Assembly (NCBI GenBank): GCA_020629835.1 | Contig: JAHDCO010000040.1 | Coordinates: 1 to 36,690, forward strand | DNA from: Granulosicoccaceae bacterium | GTDB taxonomy: Bacteria > Pseudomonadota > Gammaproteobacteria > Granulosicoccales > Granulosicoccaceae | DNA: 36,690 nt | Direction of reading: 5' to 3' | Shown: positions 15,573-32,939 of the stretch, piece after piece | Layout of the letters: each line of letters starts with the position of its first letter | How positions within the stretch are numbered: the first letter of the stretch is position 1 | The notes under the pieces: model-generated | Seen by the model: the letters and a program-made list of their open reading frames with translations, nothing else | Databases searched by the model: none | Told to the model about the DNA's origin: nothing | Translations under genes and position numbers: made by a program

Positions 15573-16835
15573 CTACGCAGCGCGACGATAGTAAACCGGT
15601 GCTTCCTGGCTGCAACTTTCATATACACCCAGCACTTGGTTGGTCACTTTTTCCCAGGTAAAGCGCTCCTGCACTGTGCCAAAACCTTCCTCGGCCAAGC
15701 GCGCGGCGAAAGCATCGTTACTCAATACGCGCTGCAAACCACGAGCAATCGCTTCGGGCGAATCGTCAACCAATAGCCCGTCCACTTCACTCTGGATAAC
15801 GCAACGACTCACCGGGCGGTTAAGCGCAATAACGGGTGTACCGCAGGCCATGGCCTCGATATAGACACCGCCTAAGCTCTCTCGTCGGGACGGAACGCAA
15901 AGTACTGCTGCCTCTTCCAACAACGCACGCTTCATAGGCTGAGAGACGTCTTGAATCAAATGCACGCGCTCGTGGCGCCGAAGCTCGGCCATCTCATCTT
16001 TGAACGCTGTGCTACTGCCCTCTGCCGGAATAACGACTACCAGTTGAGTTTCGTCATCGGTTTGTTTGAGCAGGTTGAACGCGGCAAGTAATGACGTATA
16101 GCCCTTTTCAGGAACCAAGCGGCCAAGAAAAAGTATGAACTTCTCAGACAACAGATGATTGTGTTGGCCCTGTTCTTCAATCGGGTTCCGGTCTTCCAAA
16201 ATCGGGGCATAAGGCACGATCGATATTTTCGAAGCCTCCACACCGTGAGCGCTTAGCCAGCTTGCCTCATGAGAGGTTAAGGCAATAATGGCATCAGCTT
16301 TACTGTACAACCAATGGAAACTGGGAGAATCCCAGGCGCTGCCCTGGTCGGATGTGTCCAGTATGTTGGGTGTAAATACAAACGGAATATTCCGCTGCTT
16401 CGCAATGATTGCAGCCAAACACGCCGCTTCAGTCAAGCCGTTGTATATGAAATGAATGCGATCGGCATCAGCCAGCGCGCTTTCTGCAGATGCTTTGAGG
16501 GCTTTATAAAAACACAGATGAAACAGACGGCTTGCCACTTTGCTGCGTGAGCGCTGGGAACCCAAGACGTGTAGCAGCCAGGACCACTGGGGGTCTGGAT
16601 CAAGCGTTGTTGTGCATACGGACTGATCCCATTTTTTGATGGGCTCGGCAACAGCTGCAGCCAGTGCTAACGGCAGGTGTAAGTCCTCTGTGCGCGTGCA
16701 GTGCGATACCACACTCACGGATTGATGCCGCGCCAGGTTTTGCGCAAGTTCGCGGGAGTGAAACTCAGTCCCACCAACGGCTGGCCAATAGCGAGGCACC
16801 CACAGCACAGTATGTGAATCGGATAAGGATTTCAT
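15573..16835 (-). CDS. Glycosyltransferase family 4 protein
   Basis: The 420-residue product is a GT-B fold retaining glycosyltransferase. The N-terminal half opens with VLWVPRYWPAVGGTEFHSRELA, a typical acceptor-domain start (glycine-rich loop GGTE). The C-terminal half has FILFLGRLVPEKGYTSLLAAF (as FLGRLVPEKG) and the sugar-nucleotide signature YIEAMACGTPVIALNRP. The family transfers sugars from NDP-sugars to glycans or lipids; donor and acceptor cannot be told. It is not in an operon with other polysaccharide genes: hemE converges from one side, and the lipoprotein/LruC module diverges on the other. A role in exopolysaccharide or glycoconjugate synthesis is inferred. Confidence 0.9.
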   Translation of the reverse strand: MKSLSDSHTVLWVPRYWPAVGGTEFHSRELAQNLARHQSVSVVSHCTRTEDLHLPLALAAAVAEPIKKWDQSVCTTTLDPDPQWSWLLHVLGSQRSRSKVASRLFHLCFYKALKASAESALADADRIHFIYNGLTEAACLAAIIAKQRNIPFVFTPNILDTSDQGSAWDSPSFHWLYSKADAIIALTSHEASWLSAHGVEASKISIVPYAPILEDRNPIEEQGQHNHLLSEKFILFLGRLVPEKGYTSLLAAFNLLKQTDDETQLVVVIPAEGSSTAFKDEMAELRRHERVHLIQDVSQPMKRALLEEAAVLCVPSRRESLGGVYIEAMACGTPVIALNRPVSRCVIQSEVDGLLVDDSPEAIARGLQRVLSNDAFAARLAEEGFGTVQERFTWEKVTNQVLGVYESCSQEAPVYYRRAA

Positions 16836-17135
16836 TGATTCATTGTTGTTCTTTTACATCGAACGCTAAACACACCATCTCCTCAGTATTTAAACGTTCT
16901 GATTCGGAAAATGATCCTGTCGGATATATCGGTACACATTGAGTTTCATTTAGCCAAAAAGCTAGGCCCCTACCTGCCTGAACTGTGAATCGGATCTGGT
17001 AACCGGTTCTCATCACCGTGCCAATGAGATTCTCGAACTTTAAATCGCTTCGCCCAAGGCCGTCCCTATACGTAATGCATGTCCTTATATAGCAGGGCAC
17101 GCAACCATGATCATTTTCGGAAAAGGGAAGCCTTG
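16836..17135. other. 300-bp divergent intergenic region with conserved motif GTTCTCATC
   Basis: This gap separates the glycosyltransferase from the first lipoprotein gene. GTTCTCATC at 17006-17014 recurs at the same distance (130 nt) upstream of the second lipoprotein gene. GCCAATGAG (17020) and GCCCAAGGCCG (17052) also have close counterparts there (GCCAACGAG at 20215, GCCCGTGGCCG at 20262) with altered spacing. I see no convincing -35/-10 pair. A minus-strand frame of 86 codons (16840-17100) crosses the region but I do not accept it as a gene. Confidence 0.5.
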
Positions 17136-17651
17136 ATGAACAAATGCAAATTTTCGACCGGTAGTGGCCTGGTCATTCTCTCTTCGCTGTTGGTGGCCTG
17201 CGGCTCACCCAGTAATACAGGCGACCAGCCACTGCTCGGCGCTGCTCAGGGCGTTGGCCCAGCAGTGCCAGCGGTAGCGGAATTACCCGCCACGTTTGTA
17301 GAACTCTCTAACGAAGAACTCACCGATTTAGCTGACGTTCCCGAAACAAAAACCTCCGACCTGTTAGTTGCGAGTGACTTCACATTCAGTACCTCGCGTC
17401 GTGTTGGCGTGTCTTTAGATATTCCAGAAGCGAGCGATATGCAGGCAGAGGCATCAATTTGTACTGACTACACGCTCTTGCCAGACGGAAGTTTTGACAT
17501 CAACTACGACAGTTGTGTGATGACAGCACCACTTGCCGGAGGCGTGTTTACCGACAAAGTCAATTTGGTTAACCAACACCAGAGCGCGGTGGCTGTGGTT
17601 TGGTTAGAAGACACAACTATGCAACCGATTTTTAGAGAATTCGAATTTTAA
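17136..17651 (+). CDS. Lipoprotein of unknown family, copy 1 of tandem lipoprotein/LruC module
   Basis: The 171-residue product starts at the ATG at 17136 (GGGAAG 5 nt upstream) rather than the earlier frame opening at 17079. It has a lipoprotein signal sequence with lipobox LLVAC, then CGSPSNTGDQPLLGAA. The mature part is mostly polar and acidic, with two further cysteines in CTDYTLLPDGSFDINYDSC that may form a disulfide, and it ends FREFEF. I do not recognise a family. A paralogue of identical length lies at 20323-20838; by eye they agree at well over half of positions, including LSNEELTDLADVPETKTSDL versus a closely similar segment. The LruC-domain gene follows 155 bp downstream. It is likely attached to the inner or outer membrane; the residue after the cysteine is glycine, which does not suggest inner-membrane retention. 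Confidence 0.85.
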   Translation: MNKCKFSTGSGLVILSSLLVACGSPSNTGDQPLLGAAQGVGPAVPAVAELPATFVELSNEELTDLADVPETKTSDLLVASDFTFSTSRRVGVSLDIPEASDMQAEASICTDYTLLPDGSFDINYDSCVMTAPLAGGVFTDKVNLVNQHQSAVAVVWLEDTTMQPIFREFEF

Positions 17652-17753
17652 TTAATACCAAGCAAACAGCCAGACGTTGACTTCACGAGCATCAGTTTGT
17701 ACTGAGGCTTAATCATCGTCAGTCAGTAGCTTGCCAAAGAACTGTTTCGTGCT

Positions 17754-17783
17754 TTGGCCAAAAAATTAAATAAAAAATATAAC
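17754..17783 (+). promoter_or_regulatory. Possible promoter of the first LruC-domain gene
   Basis: TTGGCC (17754-17759) and TATAAC (17778-17783) are spaced by an A-rich 18 bp, 24 bp before the ATG. Both hexamers are near consensus. A short stem (GCCAAAG 17733-17739 with CTTTGGC 17752-17758) overlaps the -35 region. Confidence 0.35.
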
Positions 17784-17806
17784 GTTGTAAAACGCAGAGC
17801 ACACAC

Positions 17807-19972
17807 ATGACTAGAGTACTCAAGCACTCCCTTGTTCCCTCCTGCTTGTTAGCAATTGGCCTGAACTTTTCTCCCGTGACCACAGCGGTTGCCGACCAGT
17901 TTGCTGGAAACGATTTTGCCCCCACAGCATTTACAGAATGCGCAGCCGAAGCGTTTTTAACGCAGGGCTCACAATCGATCACTTACGGTGTAAACCTGTT
18001 AACTGGTGACTACAGCGTGGCCAGCAGTAACCCAAATAACGATCCGGTCAAACTGAATGGCATGGGGTTTAATCCGCAGGATCGCTTTGCCTATGGGTGG
18101 AGCTACATCCACGGGCAACCCGCTCGCATACATTCTGACTGGTCGGTAGAGCCGTTTGGTACAAACACCAACATTACCAATTCAAATTTCTACGTGGGTG
18201 ATGTTTCGATTACTGACAATCGATACTACGTGTATCGCAATGGCAGTTCTTACGGGCTGTATTACTTTGAATTAGATCCGGATCACCCGAATTATCAAGA
18301 GATGCAGCTGGTACCTAACAGCAATACCATGAATATCGGTATTGCTGATTTTGCGTTTCATCCTTCCAACGGACTCGCGTATGCGGTTGATAGCTCAGGC
18401 AACCTCTATTCGATCAATGCCTCTGCCGGCACACGCTCGTTATTAGGCAATACGGGGGAAACCGGTACTTTCGGTGCCGCTTATTTTGATCCGGATGGTA
18501 ACTTGTATATAGGGCGTAACCAGGACGGTAAGATATTTCGAATCGCCATCGATGCAGGTTCCACAACAGCAGAAATTTTTGCCTCGGGTCCATCGGCATC
18601 ATTTAATGATGGATTTCGTTGTGCGATTGCCCCAGTTGGCTTAAGTGGCGGCGAATTACTTGATTTTGGTGATGCACCTGAAAGCTACGGTACATCCATT
18701 CAAACAAACGGCCCTCGACACGGCTTTTCTTCCGAACCTTCAAGTATTCGTTTGGGTAGCGTTGTAGACGGCGAATCCGACGCCTATGCACATCCGCTAA
18801 CCGATAACGACTCTGGCGTTGACGAAGACGGTATTACGTTTATCACGAACATTGTTCAACACCAAACCACGCGTGTGTCAGTTGATGCGCCCAATGGTGG
18901 ATTATTGAATGCCTGGATTGACGTTGATCGTAATGGAACGTTTGATCTGACTGATCAGGTGATCACAGATCAGGTACTGTCTGCCGGTCAGCAAATCGTA
19001 TCTTTCACCACACCATCCAACGTGGTAGAGGGTTCATCCTGGGCGCGTTTCCGCATCTCAAGCGTTTCAGGCGTTGAAGCAAAAGGTGGTGCGCCCGATG
19101 GCGAAGTGGAAGACTATCCGGTCAACCTGCTGCTAGACCCGGTCACGGTATCCCACTACCCCTCACGCACTGGTTTGGTAACCGTTGCTTTTGAGGATAA
19201 CTGGCCGTTTGAGGGTGACTATGATATGAATGATTTAGTAACCCAACTAAGAACAACCACCTACAAAGATTCTCGTGGCTTCACTCGCGTAGATATTACT
19301 GGACAAGTCAGTGCTGCCGGCGCCTTCTATGAAAATGGTTTCGCCATCCGGCTGCCTGGAGTAGCTAGGGCTGACATTGATGAAAACAATCTCGACTTTC
19401 AAATCAACACCGTAAGTCAGAATGAATCACCATTAGAAGCCGGTCGGCAGGAAGCGATTTTTATTGTTACCGAGAACGTGTTTGATCACGTCGCTAAAGG
19501 CCCCGATTGCGATTTTTATCGTTCGGAAGCAGGATGCGGTGCAGCCATTGAATTCACATTTAACTTAACCATCCCGTTTTCACAGCCTCAAAGCGTGCAG
19601 CTGTCAGGCGTATTTGATCCGTTCCTTTTTGCTACACCTGGCGCGTTCCACGGTGCTCACTTTACATCACCTCCAGGACGCAGTTACGAGATTCATGTGA
19701 AAAATCAGGCGCCCACAGAAGCGTTTGACATGAACTTGTTTGCCAACGTTGGGCAGGATGCATCGGATCCTGACAATGACCTGTACTACTTAACGAGTAA
19801 TGGTCTACCCTGGGCGTTGATTATCGGTGACGATTGGTTACACCCTAGAGAGCATGTGGAGATATCGGATGCTTATCCAAACTTCCAATCGTGGGCTACC
19901 AGTAACGGTGCGCTACACACTAACTGGTTTGAAGGTGAAAACGCGGATATGCCGTTGGTCTTTACTGAATAG
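17807..19972 (+). CDS. Secreted LruC/GEVEDY-domain protein, copy 1
   Basis: The 721-residue product has a signal peptide ending TTAVA (cleavage after A29). The mature N-terminal region (about 30-285) begins DQFAGNDFAPTAF, contains AFLTQGSQSITYGVNLLTGDY and repeated GAAYFDPDGNLYIGRNQDG-type strands, and resembles the beta-propeller-like DUF6923 family. A GEVEDY domain follows (about 286-440), with FGDAPESYGT at its start, a calcium-loop-like DVDRNGTFD, and GEVEDY itself at 432-437. The C-terminal region (about 459-721) is an LruC domain: FEDNWPFEGDYDMNDLV, and GDDWLHPREHVEISDAYP near the end. Cysteines are few and paired (FTECAAE, FRCAI, PDCDF, AGCGA). No membrane anchor or sorting tail is visible. 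LruC proteins have no established function. The neighbouring lipoprotein gene, also duplicated, is the likely partner. Confidence 0.85.
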   Translation: MTRVLKHSLVPSCLLAIGLNFSPVTTAVADQFAGNDFAPTAFTECAAEAFLTQGSQSITYGVNLLTGDYSVASSNPNNDPVKLNGMGFNPQDRFAYGWSYIHGQPARIHSDWSVEPFGTNTNITNSNFYVGDVSITDNRYYVYRNGSSYGLYYFELDPDHPNYQEMQLVPNSNTMNIGIADFAFHPSNGLAYAVDSSGNLYSINASAGTRSLLGNTGETGTFGAAYFDPDGNLYIGRNQDGKIFRIAIDAGSTTAEIFASGPSASFNDGFRCAIAPVGLSGGELLDFGDAPESYGTSIQTNGPRHGFSSEPSSIRLGSVVDGESDAYAHPLTDNDSGVDEDGITFITNIVQHQTTRVSVDAPNGGLLNAWIDVDRNGTFDLTDQVITDQVLSAGQQIVSFTTPSNVVEGSSWARFRISSVSGVEAKGGAPDGEVEDYPVNLLLDPVTVSHYPSRTGLVTVAFEDNWPFEGDYDMNDLVTQLRTTTYKDSRGFTRVDITGQVSAAGAFYENGFAIRLPGVARADIDENNLDFQINTVSQNESPLEAGRQEAIFIVTENVFDHVAKGPDCDFYRSEAGCGAAIEFTFNLTIPFSQPQSVQLSGVFDPFLFATPGAFHGAHFTSPPGRSYEIHVKNQAPTEAFDMNLFANVGQDASDPDNDLYYLTSNGLPWALIIGDDWLHPREHVEISDAYPNFQSWATSNGALHTNWFEGENADMPLVFTE

Positions 19973-20322
19973 CCAGCCTACTTCTTAAAGGCTGATTAGT
20001 ACCCAGCCGCAGCTTCTAACATTTAGAAGCTGCGGCTTTTTTATGCCCTGATGGTAGACCGACTCTACAAGAGTGTTAAAGCGCCTCATTATCTAAAGTA
20101 AGACAAAAAGTTTCACTTAAGCTGGTGCAAGGGCTTTGCGCTTGTCTTTAGCTGCACTCTATTACCAGTTTGAGAACTACGACTGCAAACCCGTTCTCAT
20201 CCTTTCTCACTTGCGCCAACGAGGGCTTCATATCCACCTGTATCAGGACGATTTACAGTTTGCCCGTGGCCGCGATACAAAAGTCTAGGCCATTTCTTTA
20301 ACCCTCAAGGGTGTAAGTCTTG
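19973..20322. other. 350-bp intergenic region between the two lipoprotein/LruC modules
   Basis: The first 70 bp hold the terminator of copy 1. The remainder is the upstream region of copy 2, with GTTCTCATC at 20193-20201 (130 nt before the ATG), GCCAACGAG at 20215 and GCCCGTGGCCG at 20262, matching the upstream region of copy 1. I see no gene or convincing promoter hexamers. Confidence 0.5.
20005..20042 (+). terminator. Strong intrinsic terminator after the first LruC gene
   Basis: A perfect 15-bp stem, AGCCGCAGCTTCTAA (20005-20019) with TTAGAAGCTGCGGCT (20023-20037), has the 3-nt loop CAT and is followed by a run of T to 20042. It ends copy 1 of the module. Confidence 0.92.
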
Positions 20323-20838
20323 ATGAAAAACCAAAAAATAAAATTAGGCACTGCCTTCATCGTTATGTCTTCATTACTTACTGCTTGCGGGTCACCCAGC
20401 AGTACGGGAGACCAGCCCTTACTAGGAGCCGCTGTTGGATCGGGAGAGCCGGTAAACAACGAACCTGCACCCGCGTCATTTGTCACTTTGGATAATGAAG
20501 AACTCAGTAACATCACGGACGTACCTGAAACAAAAACTGCTGACCTGTTAGTACAAGACGACTTTACCTTCAGCACAGCCCGCTTGGAAAATGTTTCTTT
20601 ATACATACCTGAAGCAAGCGCCATGGAAGCTGAAGCATCGTTTTGCACCGATTACACAGAGCAAGCAGACGGAAGCTTCGACGTGAACTACAACAGCTGT
20701 GTACTAACGGCTCCGTTAGTTGCAGGCGCACTGACCGAGGAACTGGACTTAGTTAACCAATTCAACAAAGCATTAGCGGTTGTTTGGTTTGAAGATACCT
20801 CTATGGCACCTGTGTTCAGAGAGTTCCAATTCGATTAA
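20323..20838 (+). CDS. Lipoprotein of unknown family, copy 2 of tandem module
   Basis: The 171-residue product starts at the ATG at 20323; a TTG just before it (20320) is in frame but less likely. Lipobox LLTAC is followed by CGSPSSTGDQPLLGAA, nearly the same as copy 1. The mature part carries the same pair of cysteines (CTDYTEQADGSFDVNYNSC) and ends FREFQFD. Conserved blocks between copies include LDNEELSNITDVPETKTADL and AVVWFEDTSMAPVF. The family is not recognised. AAGGG at 20307-20311 could act as a weak ribosome binding site. It lies 163 bp before the second LruC gene. Confidence 0.85.
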   Translation: MKNQKIKLGTAFIVMSSLLTACGSPSSTGDQPLLGAAVGSGEPVNNEPAPASFVTLDNEELSNITDVPETKTADLLVQDDFTFSTARLENVSLYIPEASAMEAEASFCTDYTEQADGSFDVNYNSCVLTAPLVAGALTEELDLVNQFNKALAVVWFEDTSMAPVFREFQFD

Positions 20839-21001
20839 ATCCGTTTGACAAAGAATTTTTTGATCCTTTACTACCAGAACCCGCTTCCGCTAGCGATCAA
20901 GAGTGAAACTCAATAGCGTGTACAAGACAGGTGGTTTGGAGGACCTTAAGTTTTTCCGTCAGCCACGCTAACCCTTAAAATAAAAAGCAAGAGTACGCAT
21001 C

Positions 21002-23185
21002 ATGAAAAAAGTACCTCAGCTCAGACTAGTCACCTCCTGCCTAATGGCGATTGGTCTAAACGCATCTCCCCTATCAACTGCCGTTGCAGACCAATTTGCA
21101 GGCAATGATTTCGCACCTACAGCCTTTAGCGAGTGTTCTTCGGAAGCGTTCCTGACACAGGGTCGGACGTCAGTCACCTACGGCATAAACCTGCTTACCG
21201 GCGACTATCACATTGCAGACGATGACAACGGTGGCGATGGAAGCGTACCTGTCGTTCAGTTAAACGGATTAGGGTTTAACCCTCAGGATCGATTCATCTA
21301 CGGTTGGAGTTACACACACGGCCAGCCTGCCAGAATTCATTCTGACTATTCTGTTGAGCCATTTGGCACTGACACAAACATTACTAACCAAAACTATTAC
21401 ATCGGTGATGTATCGATCACACACAACCGTTATTACGTCTATCGACAAGGGAGCAGCTATGGGCTGTACTTCTTTGAGTTAGACCCATCTAATCCTAACT
21501 ACCAGGTCATGCAACGAGTACCGAACAGTCAGAATATGAATGTTCGTGCCTACGATATCGCGTTCCATCCAACCAGCGGTGCAGCTTATATGGTGGACCG
21601 TTTTGGCATTCTGTTTATGATCGATGTTGATGCTGGTACTGCCACAAGAATGGGCGATACCGGGGAACCGGGCACTTACGGGGCAGCCTACTTTGATCCA
21701 AACGGCAATCTGTACGTGAGTCGTAACCAGGACGGTCAAATCTTCCGTATCGCTATTGATGCAGGCTCTACAACGGCTGAATTTTTCGCAGCGGGTCCTA
21801 AGTCGGGTATCAACGACGGCTATCGATGTGCGATTGCTGACTTACCGGTTGCTGCAGCCGACAGCATTGATTTCGGTGACGCACCGGACAGCTACGGAAC
21901 CACACTGGCAAACAATGGCGCGCGGCACGGCATATCCGACCCTAGTGCGACTAACACAGTACGTTTAGGCAGCCTTCTAGACGGTGAAACCGATGCGTAT
22001 CATTACCCGTTGAGTGACAATGACAACGGTGCGGATGAAGACGGCATTGTGTTCATCTCAAACATCGTTCAACACCAAGTTGCGCGTGTGTCTGTGGATG
22101 CACCGAACGGCGGTATCCTGAGCGCGTGGATTGATGTAGATCAGAATGGTAGCTTCGACAGTACCGAACAAGTTATCACAGACACCTTGTTAAATCCTGG
22201 TGAGCAGGTGGTTGCTTACACAGTACCGTCTAACCTAGTCGCAGGCGACTCCTGGGCTCGATTTAGAATCTCCAGTGTGTCAGGTGTAGAAGCCATTGGT
22301 GGTGCACCCGATGGCGAGGTTGAAGACTATCAAGTTACGCTGATCGAAGATCCGATTGTTGCTTCAACGTTTCCTTCACGTACGGGTTGGGCGACAGTGG
22401 CTTTCGAAGACAACTGGCCCTTTGAAGGTGACTACGACATGAATGATTTAGTCACACAGCTTCGCACCACGACTTATCGAGACTCTCGTGGCGCTCTGAA
22501 AGTGGACATCAGCGGGCGAGTCATGGCGTCCGGTGCATCGTACGAAAACGGTTTCGCCGTACGCTTGCCGGGTATCGAACGCGCATCGGTTGATGAAGCT
22601 AACGTAACCTTCACAATCAACGATCGCGCTGTGCCACAAAATCCACTGGAGGCTGATCGAAAAGAAGCCATCTTGATCATTACCGAAAATGTGTTTAATC
22701 ACGTAGGTACGGGTCAAGACTGCAGTTATTACCGAACCGAGCCTGGCTGTGGTGTACCTATTGAATTTACGTTCAAGGTAACCGTACCGTTCAACGAGCC
22801 GCAAACTACAAAGTTAACCGGTATCTTTGATCCCTTTTTGTTCGCAACGCCAGGTGCGTTCCACGGTGCACACTTTACCTCTGCACCAGGTCGTGCTTAC
22901 GAGATTCATCTTAAGAATCAAGCGCCAACTGAAGCTTTTGATACAAGCTTTTTCGCTAGCGTGGGTCAAGATCGATCAAGACCAGAAGAAGATCTGTATT
23001 ACCTGACCGGTAATGGCCTACCCTGGGCATTAGTCATCGGTGACGATTGGCTACACCCAAGAGAGCATGTGGAAATCTCGGATGCGTATCCAAAGTTTAG
23101 AGACTGGGCAACCAGTAACGGTCAACAAGACGCTGACTGGTTCACTTTGGAGAATGCGGAGCTACCACTGGTGTACACCGAGTAA
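21002..23185 (+). CDS. Secreted LruC/GEVEDY-domain protein, copy 2
   Basis: The 727-residue paralogue of the first LruC protein has the same layout: signal peptide ending STAVA (cleavage after A29), an N-terminal DUF6923-like region starting DQFAGNDFAPTAF, a GEVEDY domain from about residue 290 (FGDAPDSYGT, DVDQNGSFD, GEVEDY at 438-443), and an LruC domain from about 465 (FEDNWPFEGDYDMNDLV) to GDDWLHPREHVEISDAYP near the C-terminus. The extra residues relative to copy 1 are mostly an acidic glycine-rich insert near residue 73 (DDDNGGDGSVP). The cysteine pairs are conserved. The C-terminus, LPLVYTE, matches LPLVFTE-like MPLVFTE of copy 1. It is followed by a terminator and converges on ponA. 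Function is unknown; surface or periplasmic location is inferred from the signal peptide. Confidence 0.85.
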   Translation: MKKVPQLRLVTSCLMAIGLNASPLSTAVADQFAGNDFAPTAFSECSSEAFLTQGRTSVTYGINLLTGDYHIADDDNGGDGSVPVVQLNGLGFNPQDRFIYGWSYTHGQPARIHSDYSVEPFGTDTNITNQNYYIGDVSITHNRYYVYRQGSSYGLYFFELDPSNPNYQVMQRVPNSQNMNVRAYDIAFHPTSGAAYMVDRFGILFMIDVDAGTATRMGDTGEPGTYGAAYFDPNGNLYVSRNQDGQIFRIAIDAGSTTAEFFAAGPKSGINDGYRCAIADLPVAAADSIDFGDAPDSYGTTLANNGARHGISDPSATNTVRLGSLLDGETDAYHYPLSDNDNGADEDGIVFISNIVQHQVARVSVDAPNGGILSAWIDVDQNGSFDSTEQVITDTLLNPGEQVVAYTVPSNLVAGDSWARFRISSVSGVEAIGGAPDGEVEDYQVTLIEDPIVASTFPSRTGWATVAFEDNWPFEGDYDMNDLVTQLRTTTYRDSRGALKVDISGRVMASGASYENGFAVRLPGIERASVDEANVTFTINDRAVPQNPLEADRKEAILIITENVFNHVGTGQDCSYYRTEPGCGVPIEFTFKVTVPFNEPQTTKLTGIFDPFLFATPGAFHGAHFTSAPGRAYEIHLKNQAPTEAFDTSFFASVGQDRSRPEEDLYYLTGNGLPWALVIGDDWLHPREHVEISDAYPKFRDWATSNGQQDADWFTLENAELPLVYTE

Positions 23186-23222
23186 CTGCTAAACGTATCC
23201 CGGTTTAACAGCCGGTGCACAC

Positions 23223-23261
23223 AAAGCCGTAAGTTCGCAAGTAAGCGGGCTTACGGCTTTT
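23223..23261 (+). terminator. Probable terminator after the second LruC gene
   Basis: AAAGCCGTAAG (23223-23233) pairs with CTTACGGCTTT (23250-23260), followed by T and TGTCGTTT. The 16-nt loop contains GTAAGC, which can alternatively pair with GCTTAC (23249-23254), giving two mutually exclusive stems. It lies in the convergent gap with ponA. Confidence 0.7.
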
Positions 23262-23307: not shown

Positions 23308-25917
23308 CTAAAAGAGTTCTTCAACCGCTTCTTTTTGATCTTGCCGACTGGCGGGAGCGGCAACAACACCGTTACTGGATGCCGTGGTGGCTCGTGGCGC
23401 AGCTTGTGTCTTGGTGACTTCGGGTTGGTTCTCGGCGTAGAAGTATTCCAGCAAGGTTTCACCGCCACTGTCTCCAGCAGATGGCTGACCTGACTTCCAG
23501 TCGATACGTACACGTTCTAAACCTTCAGGCTCAGGCAGCGGTTCGTCTTCAACCCCTTGCAACATGGTTTGCATGTACTCGGTCCAGATCGGCAACGCGG
23601 CTACACCACCGGCCTCTCCTCGCCCTAAAGGATCGAGCCCATCTGAGCCAATCCAGGCCGCAGCCACGTGGTCTTTGCTAAACCCGGAGAACCACGCGTC
23701 CAATTGGTTATTGGTTGTACCCGTTTTACCGCCTAAGTCGGATCTACCCAGCGCTTCTCCCGCCCGTCTGGCGGTGCCGCGGCGAACCACATCGCGCATC
23801 ATGCTGTTCATGATGTAGGCGTTGCGAGGGTCCACAACCAACGGGGCGTTTACGATATCCAGTTGCATGACTGCCTCGCGCGGGTCGTAGTCCGAACTGA
23901 TTTCACCGGTGTCGGGGTCAACTTCAGCCACTAAAGTCGGTCGGGTACTCAGGCCCAGTGTCTCCGCGCGCATTTCTTCAACCATGGTGCTTTTCACAGC
24001 CGGGTCGCAATCGTCGCAGAGCACCACTTTCGGTGCGGTATAGATCACGTTACCGCGGGGGTCTTCAATACGTTCAATAAAGTGCGGTTCAATTTTGTAT
24101 CCGCCATTGGCAAACACACCAAACGAAGAAGCCAACTCCATGGGCGTCACACTGGCGCTGCCTAAGGACAATGACAAGTCAGGCGGCATGTGCTGCTCTT
24201 CAAATCCAAAACGCTTGGCGTGATCGATGGCGAAGGGCACAGTAATTTCTCTGAGTACTCGAATGGAAACCAGGTTACGACTTTTCACCAGCGCTTCTCT
24301 GAGGCGCGTGGGGCCGAAAAAACGTCCACTGTAGTTTTGTGGCCGCCATTCACCCTCCAACGCTGCATCGTGGAAAACCACAGGGGCGTCGTTGTAAATG
24401 GTGGCCGGCGTATCGCCGTATTCCAATGCAGCGGAGTAAATGAACGGTTTAAAGGTGGAGCCAGGTTGCCTGCGCGCCTGTGTTACGCGATTGAACTTAC
24501 TGCGGTAATAATCAAAACCGCCCACCAAGGCCTGGATTTGCCCCGTGGTAGGAGACACCGACACAAACGCGCCTTCTACGCTGGGTTCCTGTACAAAGCG
24601 GGCTGTGCCGTCGTTCCGCATTTGAATGTTGATGACATCACCGACGTTGAGTACCTCATTAACCGCGGTAATCTCATCACCCCGTTCATCCACGCTGATG
24701 CGCTCTCTGGCCCATTCCACGGCAGCCAAATCAAAACTAAACTCCGCGCCTTCCCGGGTAATTACCACAGCCTGCTCTGGCGAGACAGCCACGACCGCGG
24801 CCGGCATGAGGTCACCGTATTCGGGGTAGGTATCCAACTGTTCGAACAATAGATCGGCATCGGCGAGGATTTCCGGGTCCAAAGTATCCACAGGGCCTTG
24901 ATAGCCGTGACGCAACTCGTAGTTATACAACGCGTTGCGAAGCGCCAGATTAGCCGCTTCCTGGGCCTTGGAATCAATGGTGGTGAACACCCGGTACCCG
25001 GCCGTGGCCCAGGTATCTCCAAACAGGTTCTTGATGCGCGTGCGCGCCATTTCACCGACGTAGTTGGCCTCCACATCGGGTTTCACCACATATTGACTGG
25101 CGGTAACCGGGGCATTTTTGGCTGACGTGTAATCAGTGGCGCTGATCATGCCCAAATCCAGCATACGACCGAGCACATAGTTTCTTCGAATCGTGGCCCG
25201 CTCGGGGTTGACGATTGGATTGAACGTCGATGGGGCTTTGGGCAAGCCGGCCAGCATGGCCGCCTCGGGCAGCGTCAGATCGCCGATGTCTTTGTTGTAG
25301 TAAACCCGTGCGGCGGCCGCAAATCCGTACGCTCGTTGGCCTAAGTAAATTTTATTAATGTAGAGCTCAAGGATTTGGTCTTTGGCCAGTTCCCGTTCGA
25401 TTTTCAGTGACAGGAAAATCTCAGTGAGTTTTCGTGCGTAGGTACGATCACGGGTTAAGAAGAAGTTTCTGGCCACCTGCATGGTGATGGTACTGCCGCC
25501 CGGCCCTTTTTTACCGGTTTTGACCAAGTGCAAACCGGCGCGAGCCAGACCTTGCCACGCCACACCAGGATGAGAATAAAAGTGCTGATCTTCAGACGCG
25601 ATGATGGCGTTTGACAGAATGTCGGGCACTTCAGAAATAAACACCGGCTCACGCCGTTTCTCGCCGTATTCAGCCACCAACTGACCATCGCTGGTAAACA
25701 CGCGCATGGGCATTTGCAACTGCACCTCGCTGAGGTGAGCCACGTCAGGCAGCGTGGGAGAGATTTTTGAGTACAGGTAGCCCGCACCAGCCACGACGAT
25801 TAATGCTGCACAAAAACCGAATATGGCAAGCCATTTGAATGTTATTCGCCACCAGCTGGTTCCAGTGCGCTTGCTACGGCGGCGTCTATGGTGGCGGCGG
25901 GATGATGATCTAGGCAT
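23308..25917 (-). CDS. ponA: Penicillin-binding protein 1A (bifunctional glycosyltransferase/transpeptidase)
   Basis: Class A PBP that polymerises and cross-links peptidoglycan in the periplasm, anchored in the inner membrane. The 869-residue product has a basic cytoplasmic start (RRHHRRRRSKR), a membrane helix at about 28-50, a GT51 domain with catalytic E109 in SEDQHFYSHPG, GGSTITMQVARNFFLT and ELYINKIYLGQRAYG, and a transpeptidase domain with S487-TFK (PGSTFKPF), SRN (about residue 538) and K731-TG (GGKTGTTNNQ). An OB-like insert between them is typical of PBP1A. The symbol mrcA is used in enterics. It is divergent from pilM, the conserved order in Pseudomonas-like genomes. Confidence 0.97.
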   Translation of the reverse strand: MPRSSSRRHHRRRRSKRTGTSWWRITFKWLAIFGFCAALIVVAGAGYLYSKISPTLPDVAHLSEVQLQMPMRVFTSDGQLVAEYGEKRREPVFISEVPDILSNAIIASEDQHFYSHPGVAWQGLARAGLHLVKTGKKGPGGSTITMQVARNFFLTRDRTYARKLTEIFLSLKIERELAKDQILELYINKIYLGQRAYGFAAAARVYYNKDIGDLTLPEAAMLAGLPKAPSTFNPIVNPERATIRRNYVLGRMLDLGMISATDYTSAKNAPVTASQYVVKPDVEANYVGEMARTRIKNLFGDTWATAGYRVFTTIDSKAQEAANLALRNALYNYELRHGYQGPVDTLDPEILADADLLFEQLDTYPEYGDLMPAAVVAVSPEQAVVITREGAEFSFDLAAVEWARERISVDERGDEITAVNEVLNVGDVINIQMRNDGTARFVQEPSVEGAFVSVSPTTGQIQALVGGFDYYRSKFNRVTQARRQPGSTFKPFIYSAALEYGDTPATIYNDAPVVFHDAALEGEWRPQNYSGRFFGPTRLREALVKSRNLVSIRVLREITVPFAIDHAKRFGFEEQHMPPDLSLSLGSASVTPMELASSFGVFANGGYKIEPHFIERIEDPRGNVIYTAPKVVLCDDCDPAVKSTMVEEMRAETLGLSTRPTLVAEVDPDTGEISSDYDPREAVMQLDIVNAPLVVDPRNAYIMNSMMRDVVRRGTARRAGEALGRSDLGGKTGTTNNQLDAWFSGFSKDHVAAAWIGSDGLDPLGRGEAGGVAALPIWTEYMQTMLQGVEDEPLPEPEGLERVRIDWKSGQPSAGDSGGETLLEYFYAENQPEVTKTQAAPRATTASSNGVVAAPASRQDQKEAVEELF

Positions 25918-25949
25918 GAGGTGCCGTGAAATCCTGATGTGAGGGTCGA

Positions 25950-25976
25950 ATTATATCAACTGAAACAACGCGTCAA
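25950..25976 (-). promoter_or_regulatory. Possible promoter of ponA
   Basis: On the minus strand TTGACG (25976-25971) and TATAAT (25955-25950) are 15 bp apart, a short but usable spacing, about 33 bp before the ponA start. Confidence 0.5.
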
Positions 25977-26168
25977 TGCGATGTTTTGGTGGTTTTCAAC
26001 TTCGACACAAACCGTCAGTATTCTGCCGCTTTTACGCCCGGATCGCAGCTGAACACTCAAGGCCCTTGACCCGGCCAACGGAGGACTGCAGCACGAATTA
26101 GCCAAGCACTGTGAGCGAATTCACTCGCGAAACTAAAGCTTTGTCTCAGTTCGGGCGCTAAACACGAC

Positions 26169-27227
26169 ATGGCACTCAAATCTAGAAAACCTGGCCTCGT
26201 AGGCTTAGATATCACCGCAACATCGGTCAAATTGCTTGAACTAAAGCTGACCGGTAAGAAACCAAAAGTGGTGAGCTATACCGTTGAGCCTTTACCGGCT
26301 AATGCGGTCAACGAGAAAAATCTGCAAGACGTGGAAGCCGTTGGTGAGGCTATTCGACGTGCAGTAAAGCGCTCAGGCACCAAAACCAAAACTTGCGCGG
26401 TAGCGGTACCCAGCGCCATGGTTATCACCAAAGTCATTCAGATGCCCGAAGGGCTGAAAGAATACGAAATGGATGCACAGATTCAGCTTGAAGCGGATCA
26501 GTACATTCCCTATGCGCTTGAGGAAGTTAATCTCGATTTTCATGTAATCGGTCCTTCCAGCGATGCCGATGGCTACGTTGACGTATTGCTCGCTGCCTCA
26601 CGCAGTGAAAACGTTGAAGACCGAACCGCAGCTGCACAAATTGGCGGATTGGACGTACGAATCGTAGACGTTGAACCGTACACGATGGAAAGCGCGTTTC
26701 AGCTAATCAAACATCAAGTGCCCAACGATGGCATGGAACAGACCGTTGCCATTCTTGACGTGGGTGCCAGCATGACCAGCTTATCTATCCTGCGCGATCA
26801 GAAGCTGGTCTATACCCGCGAACAACCGTTTGGCGGAAAACAACTCACCGAAGAAATCATGCGCCGTTACGGCCTGTCTTACGAAGACGCAGGCCGGGTT
26901 AAGCGAGTCGGTGGTTTACCTGACAACTACGAACCCGAAGTTCTGGCGCCGTTCCGAGACCTCATGGTTCAGCAAGCTAACCGCTTCTTGCAGTTCTTCT
27001 TCTCTGCCGACAAGAACGACTATGTGGATCAGATCGTTTTAGCTGGCGGTTGTACGGGTATTCCCGGTATCGCAGAACTGATTGAGCAGCGCATCGGCAC
27101 ACCAACCACCATTGTTGATCCGTTCGCGCACATGGCGGTCGGTTCTGACATTCCATCACAACGTTTAAAAGACGACGGACCTGCAATGATGATTGCCTGT
27201 GGGCTCGCACTGCGAGGAGCCGACTGA
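26169..27227 (+). CDS. pilM: Type IV pilus assembly protein PilM
   Basis: Cytoplasmic actin-like ATP-binding protein that binds the N-terminus of PilN and forms the inner-membrane alignment complex of the type IV pilus. The 352-residue product starts with LVGLDITATSVKLLEL (phosphate 1 loop), and has VAILDVGASMTSLSIL and LAGGCTGIPGIAELIE, the other actin-like nucleotide-binding motifs. It has no membrane segment. Its TGA stop overlaps the pilN start codon. The ponA-pilM gap (about 250 bp) should hold the promoter of the pil genes, but no convincing forward hexamer pair is seen. Confidence 0.97.
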   Translation: MALKSRKPGLVGLDITATSVKLLELKLTGKKPKVVSYTVEPLPANAVNEKNLQDVEAVGEAIRRAVKRSGTKTKTCAVAVPSAMVITKVIQMPEGLKEYEMDAQIQLEADQYIPYALEEVNLDFHVIGPSSDADGYVDVLLAASRSENVEDRTAAAQIGGLDVRIVDVEPYTMESAFQLIKHQVPNDGMEQTVAILDVGASMTSLSILRDQKLVYTREQPFGGKQLTEEIMRRYGLSYEDAGRVKRVGGLPDNYEPEVLAPFRDLMVQQANRFLQFFFSADKNDYVDQIVLAGGCTGIPGIAELIEQRIGTPTTIVDPFAHMAVGSDIPSQRLKDDGPAMMIACGLALRGAD

Positions 27228-27805
27228 TGTCGACAAAGATCAACTTACTGCCCTGGCGTGAGGCGCACCGAAAGACCAAGAACACGGAGTTCTTTGTGGT
27301 GCTCGGTATATGCAGTGCGCTGGTGGGCTTACTCGGATTCGGCGGGTTTAAATACGCCGAGGACAAAGTTAACTTTCAGAACGAGCGCAACGGTCGACTA
27401 AACAACGAGATTGCGTTGTTGGCTGAAGAGCTAAAAGAGATCAAAGAGTTGGAGCAAACCAAAGCCAACTTGCTGGCTCGTATGGAAATCATTCAGCAAC
27501 TGCAAAGCCAGCGTCCGCAAATTGTTCATACCTTTCACGAAGTGGCTACGCGCATTCCTGATGGTGTGTTCTTACAGAACTTAAAGCAGTCCGATAACAA
27601 GCGCATGATTATCGAAGGCCGAGCAGAATCGAACGCTCGTGTATCAGCGCTGATGCGAACGCTTGACCGAAGTGACTACTTCAGCAATCCGAAGCTAGAA
27701 GTTATTGAGGCTGATCAGGACGACGGCGTTAGTACGTTTCGCCTGGTGATGAGCCAGGTATCACCGCACGCAGAAACTACGGAGGAAGAAGACAATGGCC
27801 TCTAG
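27227..27805 (+). CDS. pilN: Type IV pilus assembly protein PilN
   Basis: Inner-membrane protein of the alignment complex. The 192-residue product begins with MSTKINLLPWREAHRK, the conserved INLLPWR motif that docks on PilM, then one membrane helix (about 24-42), a coiled-coil segment rich in E, K and L (about 50-90) and a periplasmic ferredoxin-like domain. GAGGAG at 27214-27219 is its ribosome binding site. It overlaps pilM by one base and pilO by 11 bases. Confidence 0.96.
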   Translation: MSTKINLLPWREAHRKTKNTEFFVVLGICSALVGLLGFGGFKYAEDKVNFQNERNGRLNNEIALLAEELKEIKELEQTKANLLARMEIIQQLQSQRPQIVHTFHEVATRIPDGVFLQNLKQSDNKRMIIEGRAESNARVSALMRTLDRSDYFSNPKLEVIEADQDDGVSTFRLVMSQVSPHAETTEEEDNGL

Positions 27806-28439
27806 TAGCGCGATTGAAGAACTCAAGAACATCAATTTTGAGGAAGACTTAGTCAAGCGCATTGGTACGGCACCCATCATCGCCAGAATACTGGTGGTGG
27901 TACTGGCCGCCCTAACCATTCTTGGCTTGATGTGGCATTTCATGATCACACCTCAGTTCGATGCGCTTAAAACCGCTGAGATGAAAGAGATTGAGTTAAG
28001 AACCATATTCGATCATGAGTCAGCCAAAGCAGCCAACCGTGGCGCGTACGTCGAACAGCTGGAAGAAATGAAGAAGACGTTCAACGTCATGCTTCGTCAG
28101 CTACCAAACGAAACCGACATTGAAAGTCTGCTCGTGGATTTGTCTCAAACCAGTGTAGCCAGTGGCTTGGACGTTGAATACTTCAAACCAGAACTTGAAG
28201 TACCCAGAGAGTTCTACGCGGAATATCCGATCAAAATCAGTGTGACTGGCGGGTATCACCAGTTCGGTCAATTTGTTAGCGGCCTTGCAGCTCTACCCCG
28301 AATCGTTACGTTATCGAACATCGAAATCCGAGATTCAACCGAGAGTGAGCGCCAACGAAACGGCCAAGACATCCCCATTGGTAAGAAGCTAAAGATGGAT
28401 CTTACCGCAACCACCTACCGCTACATTGAAGAGGAATAA
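27795..28439 (+). CDS. pilO: Type IV pilus assembly protein PilO
   Basis: Partner of PilN in the inner-membrane complex. The 214-residue product has a short cytoplasmic part, a membrane helix (about 32-53), a coiled-coil and the periplasmic domain with FNVMLRQLPNETDIESLLVDL (as LPNETDIESLL) and YHQFGQFVSGLAALPRIVTL (as FGQFVSGLAALPRI), typical of PilO. A strong ribosome binding site GGAGGA lies at 27781-27786. It starts inside the end of pilN. Confidence 0.96.
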   Translation: MASSSAIEELKNINFEEDLVKRIGTAPIIARILVVVLAALTILGLMWHFMITPQFDALKTAEMKEIELRTIFDHESAKAANRGAYVEQLEEMKKTFNVMLRQLPNETDIESLLVDLSQTSVASGLDVEYFKPELEVPREFYAEYPIKISVTGGYHQFGQFVSGLAALPRIVTLSNIEIRDSTESERQRNGQDIPIGKKLKMDLTATTYRYIEEE

Positions 28440-28443
28440 CACC

Positions 28444-28968
28444 ATGGCACGCTTGAAGCTGTTACCGCTGCTTGGCCTCGCCTCTGTGCTGAGTGCTTGC
28501 GGCGGCGACATGAGCGATCTTGAGCAGTTCATCGAAACCACCAAGGGTAAACACCATGGTTCGGTTGAACAACTGCCCGACTTTCCACCGTACCAGATGT
28601 TTGAGTACACCTATGTCGATGTTCGAGATCCGTTCCGCCCACAAACAGACATTAACGTGTCGATTGCGCAGTCCGCTTACGACGGCCCGCGCCCCGAGAC
28701 GCAACGTTTGAAAGAACCTTTAGAGAGCTACCCGGTTGATGCCTTGAAGATGGTCGGCTTATTGCAACAAAAGTCACAGACCTGGGGCTTAGTACGAGAC
28801 CCGGACGGCACCATTCACCGGGTTCAGCCTGGAAATTATGCGGGACAGAATCACGGCAAGATCGTATCTGTTTCCGAGTCACGAATAGATATTGTTGAGC
28901 TCGTTCCTGACGGATTGAGTGGCTGGGTCAATCGCGATGCAATGCTCGCGATGGCTGAAGAGAATTGA
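28444..28968 (+). CDS. pilP: Type IV pilus lipoprotein PilP
   Basis: Lipoprotein linking the PilNO complex to the secretin PilQ. The 174-residue product has a signal sequence with lipobox LSAC (cysteine 19), a flexible region, and a beta domain with YVDVRDPFRPQTD, VDALKMVGLLQQ and WGLVRDPDGTIHRVQPGNY, all characteristic of PilP. The ATG at 28444 has GAGGA 8 nt upstream; a TTG at 28426 is an alternative opening. It follows pilO by 4 bp and its stop is close to the pilQ start. Confidence 0.95.
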   Translation: MARLKLLPLLGLASVLSACGGDMSDLEQFIETTKGKHHGSVEQLPDFPPYQMFEYTYVDVRDPFRPQTDINVSIAQSAYDGPRPETQRLKEPLESYPVDALKMVGLLQQKSQTWGLVRDPDGTIHRVQPGNYAGQNHGKIVSVSESRIDIVELVPDGLSGWVNRDAMLAMAEEN

Positions 28969-28985
28969 TTGGAGACATGGTAAAA

Positions 28986-31166: not shown

Positions 31167-31200
31167 CGACCCATCGCTGCAACCGCAGCGTTGAAGTACC

Positions 31201-31232
31201 CAAAGGGCTTCGTCATACGACGAAGCCCTTTG
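31201..31232. terminator. Perfect 14-bp hairpin between pilQ and aroK
   Basis: CAAAGGGCTTCGTC (31201-31214) pairs with GACGAAGCCCTTTG (31219-31232) around the loop ATAC. No T-run follows, so termination would be partial; it may instead protect the pilQ message end. Confidence 0.6.
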
Positions 31233-31264
31233 TCGTTGGGCACTCGAAAGGTTATGATTGCGGC

Positions 31265-31783
31265 ATGGCCAATTTGATTTTGATCGGACCGATGGGGGCC
31301 GGAAAGACATCGGTCGGTCGAGCGCTGGCCAACCGCTTGCAGCGCACTTTCTACGACAGTGATCGCGAGATCGAAGCACGCTGTGGTGTCGATATCCCCA
31401 CCATTTTCGAATTTGAGGGTGAAGAAGGCTTTCGCGAGCGTGAAACCCGCATTATCGACCAGCTTACGTCCGAGACCGATATCGTCCTGGCGACTGGCGG
31501 GGGTGCGGTGCTGCGCGAGGAAAACCGGCAGTACCTATCCAGCCGCGGCCATGTGATTTTGTTGTCGGTGGAACTCAAAGAGCAGATCCGTCGCGTAAGC
31601 CGAGACAATAAGCGCCCGCTTCTTGCCGATGTTGATCCTGAGGTTCGATTGCAGCAGCTCTGGGAAGCACGTGGCCCCCTGTACAAATCGGTTGCAGACG
31701 TGGAGATCTCCACCGACTCCCGACGTATGTTGCACGTGGTTAACCGCATCTTGCGGCACCTGAAATCACACTCTTTAATCTAG
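31265..31783 (+). CDS. aroK: Shikimate kinase
   Basis: Phosphorylates shikimate at the 3-hydroxyl in the aromatic amino acid pathway. The 172-residue product begins [19 protein letters not shown], with the Walker A loop GPMGAGKTS at 8-16, then [11 protein letters not shown] (shikimate and magnesium binding), [11 protein letters not shown], and [13 protein letters not shown], all standard family motifs. It lies between pilQ and aroB, the conserved gammaproteobacterial order, and is followed by aroB after 20 bp. Confidence 0.98.
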
Positions 31784-31803
31784 CCAACCACCAAAGCGGC
31801 TTT

Positions 31804-32877: not shown

Positions 32878-32939
32878 ACGCATGAGCGCCGGTTCAATGG
32901 TGTACTATCGGCGGTTAATTGAACCCCGCGACTGCGCCA

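What the first reader, a model, noticed from the sequence alone, without database searches (positions are those of the whole stretch)
17006..23261. Tandemly duplicated two-gene module: unknown lipoprotein plus secreted LruC/GEVEDY protein
Two complete copies of the same gene pair lie side by side, each with a lipoprotein of 171 residues followed by an exported protein of 721 or 727 residues. Copies have diverged in DNA but kept signal peptides, cysteines, domain order and length, which suggests both are under selection as pairs. LruC-domain proteins have no established function, and I do not recognise the lipoprotein family. The pairing suggests a lipid-anchored partner for a secreted protein, forming a surface or periplasmic assembly.
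Basis: partly seen in the sequence, partly recalled or inferred. Interest (0 to 1): 0.75.

Follow-up and report, generated by a model that had tools for sequence, protein, structure and literature searches.

The report
Split surface protein with separate anchor
Two neighbouring genes, found side by side in many marine bacteria, appear to encode a secreted protein and the small fat-tailed protein that may hold it on the cell, two parts that some other bacteria make as one single protein.

Summary
In detail: two copies of a lipoprotein (171 aa) plus LruC-protein (721/727 aa) pair lie in tandem at 17136-23185, with synonymous sites saturated. The LruC protein has DUF6923 (beta-propeller), GEVED and DUF4842 domains. 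The lipoprotein has a lipobox, a linker and an Ig-like domain, and matches no curated family above cut-off. The pairing is general in the Gammaproteobacteria sampled: 105 of 107 distinct close LruC genes have the lipoprotein homologue adjacent, and the 2 misses end at contig ends. Elsewhere the usual order is LruC then lipoprotein; the window's order most simply derives from a LruC-lipo-LruC ancestor. Among 28 more distant DUF4842 proteins, the 10 with their own lipobox have no small lipoprotein neighbour, while 16 of the 18 without one do. Eight of those ten carry, after their lipobox, a region homologous to the partner domain (hhalign 95%, controls at most 1.4%). Best reading: the lipoprotein is the lipid-anchor domain of an LruC surface protein, encoded as a separate chain. 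Lipidation, surface exposure, binding and ligand are inferred, not shown.

The parts
17136..17651 (+). Lipoprotein A (partner): signal peptide, lipobox Cys22, linker with PLLGAA, Ig-like domain about 72-171 with Cys109/Cys127
   Evidence: no Pfam or NCBIfam family above cut-off
17807..19972 (+). LruC protein A: signal peptide, beta-propeller (DUF6923, residues 69-273), GEVED (367-440), LruC/DUF4842 (459-709)
   Evidence: fold of a relative
20005..20037 (+). Terminator-like hairpin after LruC A
   Evidence: 15 pairs, 8 G-C, T-rich tail
20323..20838 (+). Lipoprotein B (partner)
21002..23185 (+). LruC protein B, same domain order
23223..23260 (+). Terminator-like hairpin after LruC B
   Evidence: 16 pairs, 8 G-C
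15573..16835 (-). Divergent neighbour: GT4-type glycosyltransferase, also beside the module in 8 related named loci; possible functional link, not part of the core pair

Best explanation
The module is a split surface protein. LruC (signal peptide, beta-propeller, GEVED, DUF4842) is exported, probably to the outer surface, and works as a binding or matrix protein. The small lipoprotein is exported and lipidated, inserts in the outer membrane, and holds LruC there by docking its Ig-like domain on LruC, most likely on the LruC/DUF4842 part, because a partner accompanies DUF4842 proteins with or without a propeller. It does in trans what a homologous lipid-anchored N-terminal domain does in cis in other LruC/DUF4842 proteins. 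In this genome the locus was duplicated, giving two anchored variants. Shown by sequence: adjacency, domain make-up, lipobox pattern, cis-fused homologues, purifying selection, duplication. Inferred: lipidation, outer-membrane and surface location, docking, ligand binding.
For: (1) 105 of 107 distinct close LruC genes (101 of 600 aa or more, 6 fragments) have a partner-domain ORF adjacent; the 2 others end at contig ends (102 of 104 in the earlier). Across 79 named loci the largest neighbour clusters apart from the pair are clade-specific or small. Adjacency survives order changes. (2) Of 28 more distant DUF4842 proteins, 10 of 10 with their own lipobox have no small lipoprotein neighbour and 16 of 18 without one have it: Fisher p 5e-6, or 0.002 in Pseudomonadota alone; lineages are not independent, and the classes were read by eye. 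(3) Cis fusion: the partner profile matches the post-lipobox region of 8 self-lipidated LruC proteins, hhalign 95.3%, E 2.4e-8, 94.0% with a larger overlapping alignment; partners of propeller-less LruC match it at 96.7%; nine control comparisons give at most 1.4%, and that region against whole LruC 0.7%. (4) All 87 partner rows match a loose lipobox pattern and 79 have Gly at +2 (two rows were later dropped, one spurious, one truncated). (5) The other two Cys are both present (72) or both absent (13) in 85 of 85 rows, allowing 2 columns of slip, fitting a disulphide in an exported domain. (6) Polysaccharide genes beside the pair in some clades. (7) A Leptospira DUF4842 protein, predicted lipidated, is reported as an outer membrane protein that binds laminin, plasminogen, fibrinogen and fibronectin (PMC8280789, abstract and passages).
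Against: No interface was computed with a usable error estimate: the read-through model reports only pTM and pLDDT, and the lipoprotein linker with its PLLGAA-type motif stayed disordered. Plesiomonas has a partner-like neighbour without a lipobox, and G124 has a secretin gene there instead. Of the 16 small lipoproteins beside propeller-less LruC, only 3 match the partner profile at E<=0.01 one by one, two (L228, L278) do not match at all (E 2.8 and 1.1), and L278's lipobox has an unusual Asn before Cys. 8 of the 10 self-lipidated proteins went into the fusion test; the other two did not match (E 0.23 and 2.1). A cis form of the propeller type itself was not found: Persicobacter has propeller-like repeats, but homology to the DUF6923 region was not supported (11%). 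Vibrio neighbours that were annotated are not polysaccharide genes. Surface exposure was not tested.
Confidence: 0.6

Rival explanations
1. The lipoprotein is an export or assembly helper (pilotin- or chaperone-like) that escorts LruC across or to the outer membrane and then lets go; LruC ends up free or in the matrix.
For: A tight operon with a small outer-membrane lipoprotein is typical of pilotins (recalled). One distant LruC gene follows a secretin gene. The Foldseek list for the partner includes TssJ/SciN, an outer-membrane lipoprotein of a secretion machine, but weakly (E 0.057).
Against: A homologous domain is permanently fused to self-lipidated LruC proteins, which favours a structural part over a transient helper. 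No secretion genes were seen among the neighbour families shown (one search shows 25 of 176 families).
Confidence: 0.2
2. Both proteins are periplasmic: the pair forms a sensing or envelope-stress assembly under the outer membrane and never reaches the surface.
For: A lipobox with Gly at +2 points to outer-membrane sorting but not to surface exposure (recalled rule). Histidine kinase or response-regulator genes lie near some loci.
Against: Signalling neighbours are found at some loci only. The GEVED domain was defined in surface fibrillar adhesins (PMC10952558, passages), and a DUF4842 protein is reported at the Leptospira outer membrane (PMC8280789, abstract).
Confidence: 0.12
3. The two genes act in one pathway (for example polysaccharide binding) but do not touch; adjacency reflects co-regulation only.
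For: Polysaccharide genes adjoin the pair in some clades. No computed interface is available.
Against: Cis fusion of the homologous domain, and the own-lipobox versus partner complementarity.
Confidence: 0.08

Closest known systems
LruC-domain / DUF4842 lipoproteins (Leptospira LruC and LIC13086; Bacteroides ovatus BACOVA_00967, PDB 3oqq)
   Same: Same C-terminal domain: TIGR04456 E 3e-75, PF16130 E 3e-56; 3oqq matches a close relative at Z 23.7 over 248 residues.
   Different: Those are described or predicted as lipoproteins themselves (PMC9901810 abstract, PMC8280789 passage, PDB title; lipobox also seen in the Leptospira plasmid copy). The window's LruC has no lipobox and is paired with a separate lipoprotein.
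Self-lipidated LruC proteins of Granulosicoccaceae, Persicobacter and Emticicia (L230-L233, L298, L300-L302)
   Same: Lipobox, linker and an N-terminal domain homologous to the partner, in one chain with DUF4842 (L231 is split into two frames); three of the four Granulosicoccaceae ones also carry a PxLGAA motif after the lipobox (by eye).
   Different: Single chain; DUF4114 or other middle regions instead of DUF6923 plus GEVED.
CshA-type fibrillar adhesins with GEVED domains
   Same: GEVED domain in an exported protein (PF20009 E 2e-15; PMC10952558 passages).
   Different: No CshA ligand-binding domain appears in the Pfam scan; a propeller stands in front, and the proposed anchor is a separate lipoprotein.
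V. campbellii DS40M4 plasmid gene pair WP_010648878.1 / WP_005532939.1
   Same: Same LruC-then-partner layout with an 11-nt gap; annotated 'LruC domain-containing protein' and 'hypothetical protein'.
   Different: 36% identical LruC; plasmid-borne; single pair.

Membership tests
LruC_dom (TIGR04456) / DUF4842 (PF16130) | C-terminal LruC/DUF4842 domain above the curated cut-off | tested here: met
   253 bits against a cut-off of 36; 191 bits against 22
Self-anchored LruC lipoproteins (Leptospira LruC type) | own N-terminal lipobox in the LruC protein | tested here: not met
   A strict lipobox pattern in 1 (ambiguous, L134) of 104 close LruC proteins, not in the window's copies; pattern only, no signal-peptide predictor was available
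GEVED proteins (PF20009) | GEVED domain above cut-off | tested here: met
   57.8 and 58.7 bits against 24.4
CshA fibrillar adhesins | CshA NR2 ligand-binding domain before GEVED | tested here: inconclusive
   No such family among Pfam hits at E<=1; remote homology was not tested
Partner lipoprotein family of this report | lipobox, linker and Ig-like domain next to a LruC gene | tested here: met
Any curated family for the lipoprotein | Pfam or NCBIfam match above cut-off | tested here: not met
   Best Pfam hit DUF6325 15.1 bits against 23.4; no NCBIfam hit at E<=1
Outer-membrane surface lipoprotein | exposure on the cell surface | not testable with these tools
   Needs protease shaving or antibody labelling

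The most novel reading that the evidence does not exclude
The pair is a widespread two-chain display system of Gammaproteobacteria: a family of lipoprotein anchors, each matched to its own LruC protein, that arose by splitting (or gave rise by fusion to) the single-chain LruC lipoproteins. Anchoring in trans would let cells swap, tune or shed the displayed protein. The window's two old pairs would then be two matched, non-interchangeable versions, perhaps holding a cell-surface polysaccharide made by the neighbouring glycosyltransferase.
Probability: 0.3. Interest if true: 0.78.

Novelty: new variant of a known kind. Interest (0 to 1): 0.62.

Why it matters
LruC/DUF4842 proteins occur in many marine Gammaproteobacteria, in Bacteroidota and in Leptospira, where LruC is a vaccine candidate (PMC9901810, abstract). 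Apart from binding studies in Leptospira I found no function for them. A tightly linked partner homologous to a domain that is present in cis elsewhere gives a concrete mechanism to test, and defines a lipoprotein family that the curated libraries searched here lack. It predicts that many LruC proteins of Vibrio, Colwellia and Thiothrix that look freely secreted are in fact membrane-tethered, and which gene to delete to find out.

Tried and rejected
Lipoprotein found widely without LruC: the first class-wide count (147 of 369 genomes) looked like that, but most listed hits cover only signal-peptide and linker positions; I dropped them as artefact. A few listed weak hits reach into the domain and were not examined. 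Domain hits without LruC that I did examine: G340 and G098.

Mobile cassette: two phage records match the C-terminal domain only. 28 plasmid records match, 7 of them over 80% of the query, all Vibrio. I fetched 10 of the 28. Not a general mobile element.

Riboswitch or other known RNA: no Rfam match at the gathering score in the window or in 10 related loci.

PLLGAA as a general lipoprotein sorting motif: 0 of 23 other lipoprotein-like ORFs in 0.63 Mb of the own genome have it (the detector missed lipoprotein A, so it is not complete). It occurs in 18 of 25 Granulosicoccaceae partners by pattern and in 3 of 4 self-lipidated LruC proteins by eye. The corresponding linker did not become ordered in the read-through model.

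Known fold for the partner: Foldseek best E 0.02 (PmoD), VIA Z at most 6.5 (gingipain Ig domain, ushers), so only a common Ig-like arrangement. PDB sequence searches gave weak hits, mostly over signal peptide and linker, or none.

Polysaccharide operon as a rule: of 94 neighbour genes the families shown (25 of 176 in Pfam, 25 of 809 in NCBIfam) are mostly unrelated housekeeping genes, with one sugar transferase. The link holds only in some clades.

pTM arithmetic suggests the partner domain is placed relative to LruC, but it rests on assumed values; I give it little weight.

Automatic lipobox calls gave errors both ways (the conserved first Cys of mature LruC was flagged; some partners were missed; an overlapping 87-aa frame beside L230 was flagged), so the 28 distant proteins were classed by eye. 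The 305-aa hit beside L111/L062 entered the iterated profile by drift and was dropped, as was one truncated row.

Literature: no paper on a LruC-lipoprotein pair came up in the held open-access library; subscription papers are not held.
Full report
WHAT IS THERE. The window is contig 77 of a 4.34-Mb assembly; near relatives are named Granulosicoccaceae. Two lipoprotein-LruC pairs lie in tandem on the + strand at the stated coordinates. The LruC proteins are 70% identical, the lipoproteins 65%. Synonymous sites are saturated while dN is 0.23-0.27. A long terminator-like hairpin follows each LruC gene, so each lipoprotein-LruC pair reads like its own transcription unit (inference).

ANATOMY. Each LruC protein has DUF6923, GEVED and DUF4842/LruC domains. 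An AlphaFold model of a close relative (61-row alignment) shows a beta-propeller (about residues 56-297; VIA Z 13-14 to propellers such as LRP4 and kelch) and a C-terminal region matching the Bacteroides putative lipoprotein 3oqq at Z 23.7, 2.4 A, 248 residues. Invariant in 27 diverse sequences: Cys45, Cys272, Cys568, Cys577 and Asp471, Asp473, Asn475, Asp476 of the GDYDMND motif, which looks like a calcium site (my inference). The lipoprotein has a lipobox, a linker of low confidence (pLDDT 53-59 up to residue 70) and an Ig-like beta domain (residues 91-171 at block means of 85-97). All 87 partner rows match a loose lipobox pattern and 79 have Gly at +2 (two of the rows were later dropped), which by the recalled Lol rule points to the outer membrane. 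The two other cysteines are both present in 72 and both absent in 13 of 85 rows, never single (2 columns of slip allowed).

THE PAIR IS GENERAL. Among 192 related genomes, every full-length LruC relative seen has a lipoprotein homologue next to it unless the contig ends. A scan of named genomes with a LruC alignment, blind to the partner, gave 79 loci (best 80 of 455 relatives kept) in Granulosicoccaceae, Thiothrix, Leucothrix, Colwellia, Thalassotalea, Marinomonas, Spongiibacter, Aliikangiella, Grimontia, Enterovibrio, Vibrio and others: 77 have the partner adjacent, and 2 (L091, L098) stop at the contig end. A pooled recount without duplicates gave 135 distinct DUF4842 proteins. Of the 107 close ones (101 of 600 aa or more and 6 fragments; called propeller-type by length and profile, not scanned one by one, and including L279, which has GEVED but no DUF6923 hit), 105 have a partner-domain ORF adjacent; the two misses are the same contig ends (L074 and L079 there; 102 of 104). 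In a class-wide sample, 3 of 369 genomes have full-length LruC and the same 3 have the full-length partner. An automatic lipobox pattern finds a small lipoprotein beside 64 of 83 LruC genes and 10 of 402 other genes. Beyond the pair, the neighbour clusters are clade-specific or small.

ORDER AND HISTORY. Of 88 distinct junctions, 79 run LruC then lipoprotein, mostly within some tens of nucleotides or overlapping by the longest-frame starts; one of the 79 is the window's own 347-nt gap between its two pairs. Among these loci, lipoprotein-then-LruC is the layout of the window, G008 and two Marinomonas loci. G021 has LruC1-lipo-LruC2. In the tree, LruC1 (G002, G021, G025) and LruC2 (window A and B, G021 second copy, G008) are sister clades (joint support 99/95), and window A and B are sisters (100/99); the lipoproteins form one clade (99/98). 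In G021 the divergent GT4 gene lies beside LruC1, while in the window and G008 it lies beside the lipoprotein. The simplest history: an ancestor with LruC1-lipo-LruC2 lost LruC1 in the lineages of the window and G008, and here the remaining lipo-LruC2 pair was duplicated in tandem. Not everything fits neatly: within the lipoprotein clade G008 is the outer branch (95/92), whereas its LruC2 pairs with G021 (100/98). G002's contig ends just after the lipoprotein. Tandem pairs also exist in G015 and in Enterovibrio.

THE KEY EVIDENCE ON MECHANISM. More distant DUF4842 proteins were collected from genomes holding the module, from class and phylum samples, and from plasmids (10 of 28 matching plasmid records were fetched). 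Of 28 distinct ones, 10 have their own lipobox (4 Granulosicoccaceae, 3 Persicobacter, Phocaeicola, Emticicia, Leptospira) and none of these has a small lipoprotein next to it. Of the 18 without, 16 have one, upstream or downstream. One of the 16 (L278) has an unusual lipobox. The exceptions are Plesiomonas, whose neighbour has a partner-like domain behind a Pro/Ala-rich stretch and no lipobox, and G124, which has a secretin gene instead. I classed these by reading the N-termini, because the automatic pattern erred in both directions. Fisher p is 5e-6, or 0.002 without Bacteroidota and Leptospira; lineages are related, so these are indications. Homology of these 16 to the partner is weaker: 3 match its profile alone at E<=0.01, two not at all, but as a group (13 sequences, including Plesiomonas) they match at 92.0%. 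The self-lipidated proteins carry after the lipobox a region homologous to the partner: hhalign 95.3%, E 2.4e-8 over 85 columns; 94.0% with a larger overlapping alignment, and 96.7% from the partners of propeller-less LruC. GEVED, DUF4842 and propeller segments as controls give at most 1.4% in nine comparisons, and the region against whole LruC 0.7%. The fusion test used 8 of the 10; Phocaeicola and Leptospira did not match the domain profile. Thus a domain that is a separate lipoprotein here is covalently joined to LruC proteins elsewhere: a Rosetta-stone argument that the two chains work together, with the small one as anchor.

READ-THROUGH MODEL. No multimer tool was available. I modelled a G021 LruC-lipoprotein pair that lies in one frame, reading the stop between the genes as Gly, with 14 paired and 47 unpaired rows; in 16 of the 20 unpaired lipoprotein rows the N-terminal 38-73 residues were aligned into LruC columns. 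pTM was 0.79 and the lipoprotein domain had block means mostly above 90, but residues 743-800, its signal and linker, were below 50. Arithmetic on pTM favours a placed domain, but it rests on assumed values and there is no PAE, so this is weak.

CONTEXT. A GT4 glycosyltransferase homologous to window 15573-16835 is the divergent neighbour in 8 named Granulosicoccaceae loci (L085-L091, L103), not in L092 or the other loci of that family; a homologue also sits in a distant LruC locus with a Wzx-like gene. A GT2 gene lies directly upstream in 8 Leucothrix and Granulosicoccaceae loci, a PMT-like gene near 9, and a Wzz-like gene downstream in 10 Colwellia/Thalassotalea loci. Another distant LruC sits beside a Wza-like exporter and a GT2 gene. 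The Vibrio neighbours annotated are housekeeping genes. A polysaccharide ligand is therefore a reasonable but unproven guess.

KNOWN WORK. The library holds five papers with the term 'LruC domain', all on Leptospira by title (listing). DUF4842 is also reported as a C-terminal domain on ice-binding proteins (PMC9957290, passages). The GEVED domain was defined in work on CshA adhesins (PMC10952558, passages). LIC13086 is described as a predicted lipidated outer membrane protein that binds host matrix and plasma proteins (PMC8280789, abstract and passages). PMC9901810 (abstract) calls LruC a conserved lipoprotein. None of what I saw mentions a separate lipoprotein partner.

VERDICT. A real, conserved two-gene module that I found described nowhere in the library searched; not unique to this genome. 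The new part is the partner family and the evidence that it is a detached lipid-anchor domain. Confidence that the pair is a functional unit is about 0.95; that it works as a trans anchor, 0.6; that the displayed protein binds a surface polysaccharide, about 0.3.

Noticed in passing
L224:5972-6526 (-) and L225:6050-6562 (+): The partner's Ig-like domain (E about 1e-11) in a short protein with a membrane segment and no obvious lipobox, beside genes that look like a polyamine-type ABC transporter and a glutamine-synthetase-like gene (neighbours read by eye); no LruC match in those genomes.
   Followed up: partly
L229:2748-5535: A 443-aa DUF4842 protein directly follows a secretin gene; LruC-type proteins may also serve a pilus or secretion-like system.
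   Followed up: no
L236 (Vibrio campbellii DS40M4 plasmid): The LruC-partner pair sits on this 77-kb plasmid, and LruC also on four similar V. campbellii plasmids (74-94 kb; partner checked only in L236); there the partner's Cys pair is absent.
   Followed up: partly
L230-L233 after the lipobox: A PxLGAA motif shared by the trans partner and by three of four self-lipidated LruC proteins of the same family, but by none of 23 other lipoprotein-like ORFs sampled; purpose unknown.
   Followed up: partly
L231:4328-7129 (-): A self-lipidated LruC gene split into two frames (both pieces match the intact L232 protein).
   Followed up: partly
window 23308-34751: Ordinary neighbours: a class A penicillin-binding protein gene on -, then a pilM-to-pilQ type IV pilus cluster on + (PilM and secretin by Pfam); the genes in between and the following aroK/aroB/damX-like genes are named from recall.
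   Followed up: no
G000:C5:3250-3762: A further stretch matching the GEVED part of the LruC profile (578-aa frame) elsewhere in the same genome; DUF4842 was found only in the window's two genes.
   Followed up: no
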